Shown in pieces: positions 6,193 to 34,581 of a stretch of DNA of 39,135 nt (position 1 is the first letter of the stretch; the number at the start of each line of letters is the position of its first letter). The stretch is from a virus. Location: positions 1 through 39,135 of IMG/VR virus record IMGVR_UViG_3300035698_020236; one strand, 5' to 3'. A program made the position numbers and the translations under genes. The notes under the pieces were generated by a model. The model did no database searches. It saw only the letters and a program-made list of their open reading frames with translations, and had not been told where the DNA came from.

Positions 6193-6837
6193 TTACCAGA
6201 CATAAACTGAACCAAGACGCCCTCCGCGAGCACGTGCCAACACAGGGCGTGCCTCAAAAGTCAGCGCCAGTGTGTTGATCTCGCCAGCCGCGATGGAGTC
6301 CCACGGCAAGCCACTGGTGCAAACGGTATCGTACAGAGTAATGACAACTCCGCTGACCCCATTGGAGATATTCGGCGACGTTGGTGCATCGCATGAAACG
6401 TTACCGCTTTCAATCGACAGTGGCCGATTCTTAACGTTACAAGCTCCACCAAAGGTGATAAGTCGCTCATTGCCAAGCTCGTACATAACGCCAGTTGCCA
6501 TAGCAATTTCAAGCACGCGCGGGTCGAACTGGCGCACGCCGACTTCCACTGTGGTTTCCTCACCGGTTACAAGGTAGATACTGGAATCTGACACGTTCGC
6601 CGATTCCAAGGGTTCGATAGAAGGCGCGTGGGTAAACCCAAGGCTCTCAACAAGCCCTAACTCAAAAGACGAACCATTTACCAACCCAACGCTGGCTTGA
6701 TAGGTCGCATATGTCCAACTAGACGTTTCCAACGACCCGTACAGAGAAGCACTACCAATCCTGATTTGCGACTCTGCTTGAACCAAGAACCCCGCCGTAG
6801 CGGAAGGTGCAGTTGCGGTATAATATGTAGCCATCAT
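6193..6837 (-). CDS. Major tail tube protein (probable)
   Basis: A 214-residue protein, rich in beta strand, Ser/Thr/Gly/Val and poor in Lys, as is typical for tail tube subunits: N-terminal YYTATAPSATAGFLVQ, central TGEETTVEVGVRQFDPR, C-terminal NTLALTFEARPVLAR. The gene order (terminator-like protein, tube, then chaperone and tape measure) is that of siphophage tail modules. The start codons at 6837 and 6834 are tandem ATGs overlapping the upstream stop (ATGATG). A strong hairpin follows the gene, as also seen after the capsid gene. The assignment is by composition and position; no unique motif exists. Confidence 0.68.
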   Translation of the reverse strand: MMATYYTATAPSATAGFLVQAESQIRIGSASLYGSLETSSWTYATYQASVGLVNGSSFELGLVESLGFTHAPSIEPLESANVSDSSIYLVTGEETTVEVGVRQFDPRVLEIAMATGVMYELGNERLITFGGACNVKNRPLSIESGNVSCDAPTSPNISNGVSGVVITLYDTVCTSGLPWDSIAAGEINTLALTFEARPVLARARGGRLGSVYVW

Positions 6838-7412
6838 TCTTCCTCCTGATCTTCATCATCTTCACTATAGAGCGCGCTATCATCAACGCACTCATCAACC
6901 AAAATGAAACGTATCTGTGACGTAAGCATAGCATGGAAAACCTCCGCAGAGTCAAACCACCCCTGCATTCCATTTTCCCTGGATATGGCTCTGTCACTCC
7001 CACCCGGGTTGCGTCTAAGTTTAAACACTGTTCCGCTAATGTCATCCGCAAAGCCCGTTTTGGATTCTATCAGCGATGCAATTCTGTCCACAAACAGATC
7101 GAAATCTGAATGCGCCGCTTCGTATAATTCATCTTCATTTTGGGAAGAAACGGCATAGTCCTCTATGTGGACAACAATGTTGTATTCGGCAACCCTCGGC
7201 GCTCTTCTTGTAACGGCCGAGCCGCCAGTAGAGAATTCGTCGCTTCGCTCACAATGAACAGCAACGAAATAATAAGCCTGCGCTGGCGTCAAAACCGACA
7301 GGGTTATATGAGCTATCTCTCTCTTGGCGTCCTGAGCTAAATCCGCTACAAGGGCAGCCTTTGATTCTATAAGTAAATCCCTGATGGCTCTTTTAGCTGC
7401 TACCGAGTTCAT
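6834..7412 (-). CDS. Tail terminator / completion-like protein
   Basis: A 192-residue mixed alpha/beta protein directly upstream of the tail tube gene, where tail terminator (lambda gpU-like) or completion proteins lie. It starts with a basic helix (AAKRAIRDLLIESKAAL). A central strand pair (AYYFVAVHCE, AEYNIVVHIEDYAV) precedes the family-like helix EAAHSDFDLFVDRIASLIES. The tail is very acidic (EDDEDQEEE). Its start overlaps the receiver-domain gene by 20 nt and has no good SD, so translation may depend on coupling. Function is inferred from order and secondary-structure pattern. Confidence 0.55.
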   Translation of the reverse strand: MNSVAAKRAIRDLLIESKAALVADLAQDAKREIAHITLSVLTPAQAYYFVAVHCERSDEFSTGGSAVTRRAPRVAEYNIVVHIEDYAVSSQNEDELYEAAHSDFDLFVDRIASLIESKTGFADDISGTVFKLRRNPGGSDRAISRENGMQGWFDSAEVFHAMLTSQIRFILVDECVDDSALYSEDDEDQEEE

Positions 7413-7791
7413 CTTTTTTAAGCACCGTATCCAATAAAACTCTTAATGCGGTGGGCTTGGTAAAGTATCCATCGGCCCCAGCCGCCTTAACCGCTGACGC
7501 TGGATACTCTTCTGGATATCCCGTTATCGCGAATATCTTAATAAGCGGCTTGCTCGCTTTTACCTCTTTTATTAGCCAAAGCCCATCGAACTCATCGCCA
7601 TTCATCTTCATATCTGTGATTATTATGTCCAGAGATATAGCATTCACTTTTCTGAGGGCCTCGTTGGCATCTGTTGCTATTATTAACTCGACCCCGTATA
7701 TCTCTTTTACAATCTGCTTGCAGCTTTCAAAAAGCGCCGACAAATCATCATCAACTACCAACAGCCTTAGCGTCTTGAGTCGCTTTCGCAT
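7393..7791 (-). CDS. Stand-alone response-regulator receiver (CheY-like)
   Basis: A 132-residue single receiver domain with every key residue intact: acidic pocket D14-D16 (LLVVDDD), phosphoacceptor D60 (DIIITDMKM), switch threonine T90 (FAITGYPEE) and lysine K112 (GYFTKP). There is no output domain. Such proteins are phosphorylated on Asp by histidine kinases and signal by protein binding. No kinase is in the window. It overlaps the upstream membrane-protein gene by 41 nt and the tail-terminator gene by 20 nt, so it is embedded in the late head-tail operon. A receiver in this position is unusual. It could be a captured host gene that interferes with, or reads, a host two-component or chemotaxis pathway. 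Confidence 0.93.
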   Translation of the reverse strand: MRKRLKTLRLLVVDDDLSALFESCKQIVKEIYGVELIIATDANEALRKVNAISLDIIITDMKMNGDEFDGLWLIKEVKASKPLIKIFAITGYPEEYPASAVKAAGADGYFTKPTALRVLLDTVLKKDELGSS

Positions 7792-8140
7792 TATTTTGTG
7801 TGTCCCCCCCGCCGTTCATAATGTATCTGAGAAGCAACTCTTGGTATGTTATACCTTGCTGTTGCACTAATCGCATTTGATTCATGGATTCACAGAATTC
7901 TGCGAACTTCTCTGTCATTTTATCAATCGCAACGCAAACACGCGAGTCTGACTCTGTTTCTGCCACTATGCGCTTAAGCTCTATCTCCCTTGAGAACGAT
8001 CTCGCCTGCTCCATGCTCTCGGCAATCCATTTCCACCCTGTACCAAAAAACCAAAAGACGAGCGAAACGATAACTACAAAGAATGTGACTGAAAATACGC
8101 TTTCCGGCGTAAATAAACTAATGATTGAATCAGGAGTCAT
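7751..8140 (-). CDS. Single-pass membrane protein with cytoplasmic coiled coil
   Basis: A 129-residue protein with one strong transmembrane helix near the N-terminus (VFSVTFFVVIVSLVFWFF). It is followed by a Glu/Arg/Gln-rich helical, probably coiled-coil region (EQARSFSREIELKRIVAETESD) and a Gln/Asn-rich tail. Start taken at ATG 8140, overlapping the upstream gene by 11 nt; a longer frame to 8203 lies inside that gene. The tight overlap with the receiver gene suggests a functional pair, for example a membrane anchor or transducer. A holin-like role is possible but the single helix plus long coil does not argue for it specifically. Confidence 0.7.
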   Translation of the reverse strand: MTPDSIISLFTPESVFSVTFFVVIVSLVFWFFGTGWKWIAESMEQARSFSREIELKRIVAETESDSRVCVAIDKMTEKFAEFCESMNQMRLVQQQGITYQELLLRYIMNGGGDTQNNAKATQDAKAVGS

Positions 8141-8753: not shown

Positions 8754-9379
8754 TATAGTCCCATTCCAACGTTAAACATCGTGTATAGATAATCCCATGG
8801 ATGGTCAGCGGCCAATACCTGTCTTTGAATATTCCTTATTTCATCTGTTATCGCCCAGACCCCCTGATAACGCGTGGGGTCATACATTCCCTCCATGTAG
8901 TCAAGCCCCGGGCCACTCGGCAGCCGCAGTGTGTTCTCCGCGGGTGTCCCCGCATAGTATTGGGCGCGAATAGCAACACTCGTCTTACCGTTCAGGTACA
9001 TTTTATTTAAGGCGGATTCAAACGCAGCCTGATAGACGTTCCCTGCGCTTCCCTCTCGCCCAGGCCCAACAGCTGGGGCCGGCTTCATTACCGCCCCTGT
9101 TATGTATGACGCAGCCCCTGTGCAAGCAACAAGCGTCAAGTATGCAGTTTGAGATGTGGGCCAGGTCTCGCCGCTAATTTCTGCGAGTGGAACCACATAC
9201 CCCGCGGATTGAAGCTGCATGTCAATTTGCGCGCTCACCCACGAGATTATTGTCTCAACATACGATTTCTTTATCGATGTATCTTCTGTGAAATCGCTTA
9301 TGCCTTGAATAAGGTTCTTCAAGAGTATCGCTACGTGCGTAGATGTTGCATATGGGGGCGTAGGTGCAGCCACGGGCAT
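8753..9379 (-). CDS. Head-tail connector / adaptor protein (probable)
   Basis: A 208-residue protein directly downstream of the capsid gene, the usual slot of gp6/gp15-like adaptor proteins that dock under the portal. The N-terminal half is helical (VAILLKNLIQGISDF, SYVETIISWVSAQIDMQLQS), with the WVSAQIDMQL segment resembling adaptor helices. The ATG at 9379 has AGGAG immediately adjacent, which is too close. The GTG six bases further in (9373) is better spaced, so the true start may be two codons later. Assignment rests on order and helical content. Confidence 0.55.
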   Translation of the reverse strand: MPVAAPTPPYATSTHVAILLKNLIQGISDFTEDTSIKKSYVETIISWVSAQIDMQLQSAGYVVPLAEISGETWPTSQTAYLTLVACTGAASYITGAVMKPAPAVGPGREGSAGNVYQAAFESALNKMYLNGKTSVAIRAQYYAGTPAENTLRLPSGPGLDYMEGMYDPTRYQGVWAITDEIRNIQRQVLAADHPWDYLYTMFNVGMGL

Positions 9380-28922: not shown

Positions 28923-29405
28923 ATGGCCGAAAAACTTGCACCAGAGATAATATACGATTTTAATAGCGCTGGGTCTGACACCCCAATTCGGCAGGTGGTG
29001 TATGGCGATGATGTCATTCGCAATGACAAAAAGGGGGATGGCCCATGGGAAAGCAAGTATTACGCCAATGAGCTTGAGCAGTTGTTCGTAGACGAATCGC
29101 ATGCGATTCCGGTCAGTAAGGTTCACCCCAATGCCATAAAGTTACTGAACGAGCTGCGATCCACGTTTTGCTCTGACAAACACGTTTTCGTAACGTATCA
29201 GCAAGTGATGGCATATGGGCGCGGGCATGGGTGGGTGCGCCCTGAATACAAGTACAAAGCAAGTCCGCGAATAACAGTCTACATGAACAAGCTGTGGAAA
29301 GCTGGCATAATAAAGAAATATAGGCGTGGGATATGGCAAAATGCCGACCTGGGCAATATCAAGGGAATGAACCATGGGGTTACATATTGGCTATATGTTA
29401 CCTAG
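28923..29405 (+). CDS. Hypothetical protein with winged-helix-like C-terminus
   Basis: A 160-residue protein. The second half (HPNAIKLLNELRSTFCSD, VTYQQVMAYGRGHGWVRP, ITVYMNKLWKAGIIKKYRRG) reads as a helix-turn-helix with a beta wing, like small DNA-binding replication or regulation proteins. ATG follows the upstream stop by 2 nt. Function unknown. Confidence 0.62.
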   Translation: MAEKLAPEIIYDFNSAGSDTPIRQVVYGDDVIRNDKKGDGPWESKYYANELEQLFVDESHAIPVSKVHPNAIKLLNELRSTFCSDKHVFVTYQQVMAYGRGHGWVRPEYKYKASPRITVYMNKLWKAGIIKKYRRGIWQNADLGNIKGMNHGVTYWLYVT

Positions 29406-29421
29406 CCTCAGAAAGGGCATA

Positions 29422-29646
29422 ATGGAAGTAGACGAGAAAAGCGAGCTTATCTTTAGGGCTACGATAAATTACAAATCCGACAATTTAGGGCAAAGCCCAA
29501 CGTTGGCGGAATTGGCGCACATATGTGAATTACCGCGCACAACCGTTCACTGGCACGTAAACAGGTTGGTGGCAGACGGACGCCTAAAGCGCCTATTCCA
29601 CAGGAACCGGCTGTTCTATCGGGACGACGACGGAAATTGGGTGTAA
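29422..29646 (+). CDS. Small winged-helix DNA-binding protein
   Basis: A 74-residue protein, essentially one winged helix: LIFRATINYKSDN, PTLAELAHICELPRTTVHWH (turn and recognition helix) and LVADGRLKRLFHRNRLFYR (wing), similar to LexA/MarR-type DNA-binding domains. Start chosen at ATG 29422 with AAAGGG upstream; longer in-frame starts at 29374 and 29395 lack an SD. Likely a transcription regulator of the early region and possibly the protein acting at the 27433-27447 dyad. Confidence 0.72.
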   Translation: MEVDEKSELIFRATINYKSDNLGQSPTLAELAHICELPRTTVHWHVNRLVADGRLKRLFHRNRLFYRDDDGNWV

Positions 29647-29674: not shown

Positions 29675-29703
29675 TTGACAAGAAGTCCAATACGTGCTAT
29701 AAT
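29675..29703 (+). promoter_or_regulatory. Promoter dedicated to the RAMP-like gene
   Basis: TTGACA (29675-29680), 17-nt spacer ending CGTGC, TATAAT (29698-29703): a full consensus promoter. Start near 29710, with GGGAGG before ATG 29736. Confidence 0.86.
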
Positions 29704-29735
29704 AGATACAACGATAAATAAACAGGGAGGCGGCT

Positions 29736-30332
29736 ATGGAAAAGTATTATACTATTGATATTACGTTCATAACCCCTGTCTTGGGTGGGCAACCGTCCGA
29801 GACGATCACTACTGACTACGTTGTCGGTAAGTCTGGCCTGGAGGTGCCGGATGACGAGCTTGAAACGATTCCAGATACATTAGACAAAAGGACAACCGGA
29901 TTTCACAGAGATGACAATGACAATGTTTTGTTGTATAATTATGTTCTGAAGGGATTCATGAAAGCAGCGGCGTTCGCATTGAACGGCAGGGATGGCATGC
30001 CGAAGGCGTTCAGATCAAAGATTGGGAAGTACGTGTTTGTGTATCCGCGGGTATCGGCATTTACCCATCCCGGTACCAAAGGGGTATGGAATCTGATTGA
30101 CATTCATGAGCGTCCGGTTAGAACACAGACCCCATATGGGGAAAAAGTGGCACTGGCGCGCAGCGAGATGCTGCCTGAATCGACAGGCATCCGTTTTTCC
30201 GTTTGTGTGGTTGCTGATGGTGTGTCAGAGGATCAGCTACGTGCAATATTTGATTATGGTTTCCACCACGGCATTGGGCCGCGGCGTGGAGATGGGTTTG
30301 GTTCGTTCCGATACGAACTCAAGGCTGAATAG
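29736..30332 (+). CDS. Standalone CRISPR RAMP-like protein (Cas7/Csm3- or Cas6-type fold)
   Basis: A 198-residue protein. The N-terminal strand ITFITPVLGGQPS resembles the first strand and loop of RAMPs. NYVLKGFMKAAAFAL (~68-82) resembles the 'GSSLKGALR' helix of Cas7-type proteins. The C-terminus has a glycine-rich loop GIGPRRGDGFGSFRYEL (179-195), the classic RAMP G-x-G-x-x-x-x-G-x-G-x-G signature after a helix. In CRISPR systems such proteins bind crRNA (Cas7, Cas5) or process it (Cas6). No cas genes or repeat array lie within the window. Its own consensus promoter suggests early or constitutive expression. It could be a dominant-negative Cas7-like anti-CRISPR, part of an RNA-guided system, or an RNA-binding regulator. 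The 135 nt after it are non-coding, with a tandem GCTAAGTA (30347-30354, 30357-30364). Confidence 0.72.
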   Translation: MEKYYTIDITFITPVLGGQPSETITTDYVVGKSGLEVPDDELETIPDTLDKRTTGFHRDDNDNVLLYNYVLKGFMKAAAFALNGRDGMPKAFRSKIGKYVFVYPRVSAFTHPGTKGVWNLIDIHERPVRTQTPYGEKVALARSEMLPESTGIRFSVCVVADGVSEDQLRAIFDYGFHHGIGPRRGDGFGSFRYELKAE

Positions 30333-30467
30333 AGAACAACGCAGTGGCTAAGTATTGCTAAGTAGAGTTTTTTCGCGTCTTGATGCGTAGCGTCTAGTGC
30401 CGTTTAGCAGCGGTGCAGTAATGTGTTTTTGCGTGAAGCAACGTTTAAATTAGATTAGGGGGTGGCA

Positions 30468-34508: not shown

Positions 34509-34581
34509 GGATGCGTAGCTTAGTGGTTAAAGCGTTCGGCTCATAACCGATTGATCGCGCGTTCGACTCGCGCCGCATCCA
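34509..34581 (+). tRNA. tRNA with CAU anticodon (tRNA-Met or tRNA-Ile2)
   Basis: A complete 73-nt cloverleaf: acceptor GGATGCG (34509-34515) pairs with CGCATCC (34574-34580). The D stem is GCTT/AAGC. The anticodon loop CTCATAA (34540-34546) carries CAU. The T stem GCGCG/CGCGC (34557-34561/34569-34573) encloses TTCGACT. The anticodon stem has one T-T mismatch at its base and lacks the three G-C pairs of an initiator. No CCA is encoded. It may be elongator Met, or Ile2 if the C is modified to lysidine. Confidence 0.92.

What the first reader, a model, noticed from the sequence alone, without database searches (positions are those of the whole stretch)
29736..30332. Solitary RAMP (Cas7/Cas6-like) protein in a phage early region
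The C-terminal glycine-rich loop (GIGPRRGDGFGSF), an N-terminal TPVLGG strand-loop and a LKGFMKAAAF helix together form a RAMP-type signature. It has its own consensus promoter and no CRISPR-Cas partners in the window. A lone crRNA-binding-type protein in a phage could be a decoy subunit that poisons host type I/III complexes, or part of an undescribed RNA-binding system with the non-coding 135 nt that follow.
Basis: partly seen in the sequence, partly recalled or inferred. Interest (0 to 1): 0.9.

Follow-up and report, generated by a model that had tools for sequence, protein, structure and literature searches.

The report
Phage Cas7-like protein with guide-like RNA
This phage carries a small CRISPR-related RNA-binding protein next to a stretch of RNA built from five-letter repeats, the layout of the recently described 'VIPR' RNA-guided systems that phages appear to use against competing phages.

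Summary
The predicted structure is confident (pLDDT 94), and its 50 best PDB matches come from Cas7-bearing CRISPR effector complexes (types III and VII). The protein belongs to a family with at least 161 matching stretches in IMG/VR and 86 in bacterial and archaeal genomes.

Window 30341-30443 is a quasi-periodic tract of 21 units of 'G-Y-N-N-N' (period 5). It is the best such stretch in the window on either strand (0 of 2000 shuffles reach it). The same kind of tract lies within 800 nt of the RAMP gene in 160 of 165 loci examined. Conversely, 35 of 45 viral contigs found by tract sequence alone carry the RAMP gene within 53 nt.

This is the layout of VIPR (Viral Interference Programmable Repeat), reported in a 2026 preprint (PMC13142463): a phage RAMP ('Vipr') plus a pentanucleotide-repeat guide RNA ('vrRNA') that binds DNA through a gapped code and represses competing elements. 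I file the finding as a VIPR member with a divergent repeat consensus and no recurrent accessory gene. The 'decoy that poisons host CRISPR' idea gains no support. No target was found for the window's guide.

The parts
29675..29703 (+). Sigma-70 type promoter TTGACA-17-TATAAT with TG before the -10
   Evidence: 12 of 12 consensus matches; read directly. Not a general feature of the family: only the window's gene had a match with at most 1 mismatch.
29725..29730 (+). Ribosome-binding site GGGAGG, 5 nt before the ATG
   Evidence: Read directly.
29736..30332 (+). vipr-like gene: solitary RAMP (Cas7/Csm3-like fold), 198 aa
   Evidence: AF2 model pLDDT 94.4, pTM 0.88. Foldseek against PDB: the 50 best matches are chains of type VII, Csm and Cmr complexes, best E 1.9e-9. 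Profile against SUSP1 ALH47069.1: E 1.5e-4 over 171 columns.
30341..30443 (+). Quasi-periodic G-Y-N-N-N tract, 21 units, candidate vrRNA repeat region
   Evidence: Cyclic HMM scan found only this tract in the window on either strand. Model score 15.3 bits against a shuffle mean of -23.0 (sd 6.6), 0 of 2000 reach it; best 103-nt stretch of the window on both strands. G[CT] autocorrelation 2.31, 2.13 and 1.70 at lags 5, 10 and 15.
30333..30467 (+). Non-coding gap between the vipr-like gene and the next gene, holding the tract
   Evidence: 0 of 2000 dinucleotide shuffles reach the tract-model score. No RNA folding beyond shuffles, z = +0.83. No Rfam match.

Best explanation
The locus is a minimal VIPR-type RNA-guided system. 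The RAMP protein (a Vipr) is made from its own strong promoter together with, or next to, an RNA whose core is about 20 tandem pentanucleotides with a fixed G-pyrimidine and variable bases. By analogy with the experimentally studied VIPR of phage SUSP1, several Vipr subunits would line up on this RNA, about one per repeat. The conserved bases would be held by the protein (G-loop and thumb) and the variable bases presented to double-stranded DNA as a gapped guide. Binding would block transcription of a competing phage, satellite or prophage. Shown here: the fold, the tract, their near-universal linkage, and their strand and period specificity. Inferred from the preprint: RNA processing, RNP assembly, gapped DNA reading and the repressive outcome. 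Unknown: which variable positions are read in this variant, and the target.
For: Structure: AF2 pLDDT 94.4 with 71 homologues; the 50 best PDB fold matches are chains of Cas7-bearing type III and VII complexes; the family profile hits type VII Cas7 at E 4e-5 and Csm4 at 5e-4. Tract: G[CT] autocorrelation peaks at lags 5, 10 and 15 in the 3' flanks of 163 loci, absent 3 kb away where only codon period 3 is seen; a learned model gives G 92%, then C/T/A, A-rich, N, N, plus an extra G in about 18% of units. Linkage: 160 of 165 loci have a sense-strand tract within 800 nt, with only 13 sense-strand tracts elsewhere in 1.92 Mb; GCAAAGG occurs 161 times on the sense strand and once on the other in the first 250 nt. 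Reverse test: a tract pattern alone finds 45 IMG/VR contigs, 35 with the RAMP gene within 53 nt. Window: tract significance 0 of 2000 shuffles, best stretch in 39 kb. Precedent: the VIPR preprint describes exactly this architecture. SUSP1, read here, shows a 195-aa RAMP-like gene flanked by gaps with GGYNN tracts, and its protein aligns end to end with our family profile.
Against: The repeat is not strictly GGY/NN: the base before the G is variable (G in about 25% of units across the family and in none of the window's 20 full units). No target was found for the window's guide. Rule tests on 2.5 Mb of phage and host DNA did not rise clearly above shuffles. No recurrent neighbour gene that could be a vap. 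No 3' structured tail was recognised. Sequence similarity to the SUSP1 protein is weak (hhalign E 1.5e-4, Prob 51%; 18% identity), and the assignment of ALH47069.1 as the SUSP1 Vipr is mine, from its position, size and flanking repeats.
Confidence: 0.82

Rival explanations
1. Autoregulatory or protective RNP: the protein coats its own mRNA flanks (the G-Y-N-N-N tract) to control its own level or to protect phage RNA, without any guide function.
For: The tract is always next to the gene and on its sense strand. No target was found for the window's guide, and the gapped rule was not confirmed in this variant.
Against: Tracts are often long (median 436 nt) with hypervariable third to fifth positions (0.31 to 0.35 substitutions per position against 0.05 at the G), as expected for guides rather than a fixed binding site. 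The VIPR precedent with the same anatomy is a DNA-targeting guide system.
Confidence: 0.12
2. Decoy subunit or anti-CRISPR: the lone RAMP inserts into host type I or III complexes and poisons them.
For: Its fold is close to Csm3 and type VII Cas7, and it lies in phage early regions with many other small genes.
Against: Carrier genomes are not enriched for PF03787 RAMPs (7/50 against 41/291) or for Cas1 (17/50 against 122/291), and 43 of 50 carriers have no PF03787 protein. A decoy would not need a linked repeat RNA in 97% of loci. The profile is nearer to SUSP1 Vipr (E 1.5e-4, 171 columns) than to Csm3 (E 0.0085, 51 columns).
Confidence: 0.04
3. The period-5 tract is a DNA feature (for example a replication or protein-binding site with half-helical-turn spacing) unrelated to the RAMP's RNA binding.
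For: The mean period from the model, about 5.2 nt, is near half a B-DNA turn (inference). The gene sits in replication and recombination regions, often with an SSB gene nearby.
Against: The signal is strand-specific relative to the gene: GCAAAGG counts 161 against 1, and G is far more conserved than its neighbour. It can lie on either side of the gene but almost always on its sense strand. The published relatives transcribe it as RNA.
Confidence: 0.02

Closest known systems
VIPR (Viral Interference Programmable Repeat), phage SUSP1 and Pseudomonas fulva prophage systems (PMC13142463)
   Same: Phage-encoded ~20 kDa single RAMP with G-loop; flanking intergenic RNA made of pentanucleotide repeats with conserved and hypervariable positions; no CRISPR array or other cas genes; minimal locus.
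   Different: Repeat is G-Y-N-N-N with a variable base before the G (not GGYNN) and, in most relatives, a boundary unit GCRAN+G every 5 to 7 units. No recurrent vap gene and no recognised tail. Protein identity to the SUSP1 protein is only 18% in a multiple alignment. The gapped target rule was not demonstrated for this variant.
Csm3 / Cas7 backbone subunits of type III and type VII CRISPR effectors
   Same: RAMP fold, 'LKG' helix, C-terminal glycine-rich loop, two adjacent long beta strands where Csm3 has its thumb.
   Different: No CRISPR array or cas operon in the window; no counterpart of the Csm3 'AIGAVDSPVIRD' catalytic-Asp motif in the family alignment; profile match to Csm3 limited to the C-terminal region.
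'Cas system-associated RAMP superfamily protein' of Siphoviridae sp. ctcMb1 (A0A8S5R426)
   Same: Close structural relative, 33% identity, E 1.1e-17; already named a RAMP in its database entry.
   Different: The annotation says nothing of a linked repeat RNA or a function.

Membership tests
VIPR | RAMP protein of about 20 kDa with RRM core, G-loop and thumb | tested here: met
   AF2 pLDDT 94.4, pTM 0.88; the 50 best PDB fold matches are from type III and VII complexes; conserved G-loop. Thumb placement is inferred from the two long strands 122-132 and 135-146.
VIPR | Sequence relationship to a characterised Vipr (SUSP1) | tested here: inconclusive
   hhalign E 1.5e-4 over 171 columns but Prob 51%; HMM E 6.5e-5 in a two-sequence database. 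The SUSP1 gene was identified by me from position and flanking repeats.
VIPR | Phage or prophage encoded, minimal locus, no CRISPR array | tested here: met
   Window is a virus record with terminase, portal and major head genes; relatives in IMG/VR and MAGs; no CRISPR repeats in the window. One relative, L142, is an exception.
VIPR | Gene flanked by RNA of tandem pentanucleotides alternating conserved and variable positions (GGY/NN 'or a related consensus') | tested here: met
   Period-5 tract in the window and in 160 of 165 loci. Consensus is GYNNN, so it is the 'related consensus' clause that is met; strict GGY is not.
VIPR | Invariable structured 3' tail on the vrRNA | tested here: inconclusive
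   No folding beyond shuffles in the window gap or in tract centres of relatives; no tail search by alignment of close relatives was made.
VIPR | Adjacent vap accessory gene (typical) | tested here: inconclusive
   Immediate neighbours fall into 147 and 155 different clusters. In the window a winged-HTH protein precedes the gene and could serve, but it is not recurrent.
VIPR | Variable bases specify DNA targets with a 1-nt skip | tested here: inconclusive
   No target for the window's guide; family-wide tests near shuffle level, the single 22/22 match being compatible with chance.
VIPR | Small RNA of about 100 nt that co-purifies with the protein | not testable with these tools
   Needs small-RNA sequencing and pull-down.
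Class 1 CRISPR-Cas (Csm3/Cas7) | Encoded with other cas genes and a CRISPR array | tested here: not met
   No repeats; no cas model among the 25 PADLOC families shown for 45 window ORFs.
Class 1 CRISPR-Cas (Csm3/Cas7) | Csm3 catalytic Asp motif for RNA cleavage | tested here: inconclusive
   No counterpart of the Csm3 Asp-containing motif is visible in the family alignment, which has a nearly invariant Glu (E41) in that region instead; the profile alignment does not reach this region.
Anti-CRISPR decoy | Occurrence tied to hosts with type I/III CRISPR | tested here: not met
   7/50 carriers against 41/291 background for PF03787; an order-level draw gave 11/245. Type I was covered only through Cas1: 17/50 against 122/291.

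The most novel reading that the evidence does not exclude
This family is a separate VIPR type with its own reading code. The conserved frame is G-Y rather than GGY, leaving three variable bases per unit, and GCRAN+G marks divide long arrays (up to 353 units) into modules of about 31 nt, so that one short array may hold many guides. At least one relative (L142) sits between a Cas12f-like gene and a true CRISPR array, which could be an intermediate or a fusion of VIPR with CRISPR.
Probability: 0.3. Interest if true: 0.8.

Novelty: new member of a known kind. Interest (0 to 1): 0.62.

Why it matters
VIPR is a very recent (2026 preprint) class of RNA-guided system proposed to be ancestral to CRISPR, with experiments reported for only a few systems. 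The family described here is large and spread over phages of Clostridia, Chloroflexota and others. It has a repeat consensus that differs from the characterised type, which makes the question of how the code is read, and how strict it is, directly testable. The statistical tools used here (period-5 autocorrelation, a cyclic HMM and a DNA pattern search) find such guide arrays without knowing the protein.

Tried and rejected
Curated libraries (Pfam, PHROGs, NCBIfam, PADLOC) gave no hit for the window protein itself.

Plasmid collection: no relatives.

Rfam: only a tRNA in the window. The 135-nt gap is not a stable structure (z +0.83), nor are tract centres in relatives (mean z -0.18, against -0.36 for controls), so a structured-RNA reading was dropped.

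CRISPR-like reading of the flanks: exact repeats in several relatives first looked like arrays but on reading were degenerate GCAAAGG-type tracts. Only L142 is a true array.

Host CRISPR enrichment: none.

Target decoding: spaced-seed searches under many position and skip rules. In one search the apparent excesses at rules whose step is 5 are probably self-matches to tracts in newly fetched loci that had not been masked. With masking, only NN = third and fourth base with a 1-nt skip stood out (7 against 1 shuffled), but a second test with other lengths gave 2 against 3. The best match (22/22, L157 to a thyX-like gene in L007) is out of codon phase and is the only one in IMG/VR, so I treat it as chance.

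Convergent guides between phages: none found beyond simple homology.

Full report
WHAT IS AT THE COORDINATES. Window 29736-30332 is a 198-aa ORF with an ATG, a ribosome-binding site and a perfect sigma-70 promoter at 29675-29703. It has no hit in Pfam or PHROGs nor, as a single sequence, in the PDB. Four gut phage records encode relatives at 31-34% identity. A five-sequence profile then found 161 relatives in IMG/VR, and a 71-sequence profile found 86 in bacterial and archaeal genomes. These genomes are mostly Clostridia, but also Chloroflexota, Coriobacteriales, Saccharibacteria, Synergistaceae and others by record title.

THE FOLD. With 71 homologues the AlphaFold2 model is confident (pLDDT 94.4, pTM 0.88). 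The best 50 PDB matches are all chains of CRISPR effector complexes that carry Cas7-type subunits: type VII, Csm and Cmr, best E 1.9e-9, TM about 0.6. The family profile matches type VII Cas7 at E 4e-5 and Csm4 at 5e-4 over the C-terminal glycine loop. A relative in Siphoviridae sp. ctcMb1 is already annotated as a RAMP.

THE NEIGHBOURHOOD. In 165 loci the gene is single copy and sits among phage early genes (SSB and XRE-like regulators most often), with no fixed partner. PF03787 RAMPs are found in 7 of 50 carrier genomes and in 41 of 291 genomes of the class; an order-level draw gave 11 of 245. Cas1 is 17 of 50 against 122 of 291. A decoy against host CRISPR is therefore not indicated.

THE TRACT. 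While looking for CRISPR-like repeats I saw that the stretches beside the gene in several relatives are full of GCAAAGG-like motifs. Counting showed 161 copies of GCAAAGG on the sense strand and 1 on the other within 250 nt downstream, more than twenty times the distant background. Reading them shows a quasi-period of five: G, then C or T, then three variable bases. Autocorrelation of G[CT] in the 3' flanks is 2.26, 1.85 and 1.56 at lags 5, 10 and 15, and 1.25 and 1.50 at lags 11 and 16. Regions 3 kb away show only codon period 3. A cyclic HMM learned from the flanks gives G 92%; C 56, T 22, A 20; A-rich; N; N; and an extra G in 18% of units. The scan places a sense-strand tract within 800 nt of the gene in 160 of 165 loci (3' in 105, 5' in 36, both in 19; median 436 nt), with 13 elsewhere on the sense strand in 1.92 Mb. 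The HMM was trained on the 3' flanks of the same loci, so the first test is partly circular; the 5' tracts, the rarity elsewhere and the reverse test are not. In the reverse test, a 20-base tract pattern finds 45 IMG/VR contigs and 35 have the RAMP gene within 53 nt. Several of the other ten tracts lie close to the end of the stretch held, and four (L231, L237, L241, L248) read as GGCNN arrays.

THE WINDOW'S OWN TRACT. 30341-30443 holds 21 units, starting GCAGT-G-GCTAA-GTATT-GCTAA-GTAGA. It scores 15.3 bits against a shuffle mean of -23.0 (sd 6.6), 0 of 2000 shuffles reach it, and it is the best 103-nt stretch of the window on both strands. The 5' gap shows nothing. It does not fold better than shuffles.

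WHAT IT IS. A literature search for pentanucleotide, RAMP, Cas7 and phage found PMC13142463, which reports VIPR: a phage RAMP, 'Vipr', more basal than the CRISPR RAMPs, with RNAs of 9-16 YNNGG repeats whose NN bases specify a gapped DNA target with one skipped base. It was demonstrated for phage SUSP1 by repression, phage defence and prophage induction. I fetched SUSP1. A 195-aa gene (ALH47069.1) next to a 146-aa gene is flanked by gaps of 449 and 531 nt that visibly carry GGYNN tracts. Our profile aligns with that protein over 171 columns (E 1.5e-4), better than with host Csm3 (E 0.0085, 51 columns), and the G-loop residues coincide. I therefore file the window's locus as a VIPR member.

WHERE IT DIFFERS. 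The base before the G is variable (none of the window's 20 full units has G there), so the repeat is GYNNN rather than GGYNN. The preprint allows 'a related consensus' but I could not read its supplement. In relatives the extra G follows a conserved unit GCRAN and recurs every 5 to 7 units (mode 6), which would divide long arrays into modules of about 31 nt. In homologous tracts, substitutions per position are 0.05 at the G, 0.24 at the second base and 0.31 to 0.35 at the last three.

TARGETS. Searches for the window's guide under the published 1-nt skip rule found nothing convincing in IMG/VR. A family-wide search in 2.5 Mb of phage and host DNA did not separate any rule clearly from shuffles. 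The code of this variant is thus undetermined here.

VERDICT. A real, well-supported RAMP plus repeat-RNA system, matching a class made public in 2026. The novelty lies in the variant consensus and the breadth of the family, not in the principle.

Noticed in passing
L142 6460-9250: In a T4-like (gp23 capsid) phage contig from a Lokiarchaeota MAG, a Cas12f/Cas12u-like gene (6460-7851), a Vipr-family gene (to 8687) and a CRISPR-like array of 29-nt repeats GTGACGCCCACGTGCGCATGGGAGGATGG (about 8976-9190, four full copies and a degenerate fifth) lie in a row, with no period-5 tract.
   Followed up: partly
L248 5877-7059, L241 4989-5622, L231 1737-1928, L237 638-888: Long GGCNN-type tracts (39 to 239 units) without a recognised member of this RAMP family nearby; perhaps arrays of another VIPR type, or carriers that hold only the RNA.
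   Followed up: partly
L118 1628-5219 and 10518-10840; L082 8049-9342: Extra period-5 tracts 1.4 to 6 kb from the RAMP gene, up to 252 units.
   Followed up: no
L182-L185 (carrier genomes G022, G019, G025, G039): Host clusters with several large PF03787 proteins (about 410-700 aa, some with two RAMP domains) and no Cas1 found anywhere in the genome; they look like adaptation-less type III variants common in this bacterial group.
   Followed up: no
window 29374-29646: A winged-helix protein just upstream of the RAMP gene; possible accessory DNA-binding protein, but not recurrent in relatives.
   Followed up: partly
window 34509-34581: A tRNA gene in the phage; among the window proteins there are also an RNA ligase and glycosyltransferase matches.
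   Followed up: no
L007 6620-7130: This relative's tract is almost purely GTNNN rather than GCNNN, so the second base can switch C to T as a block.
   Followed up: no
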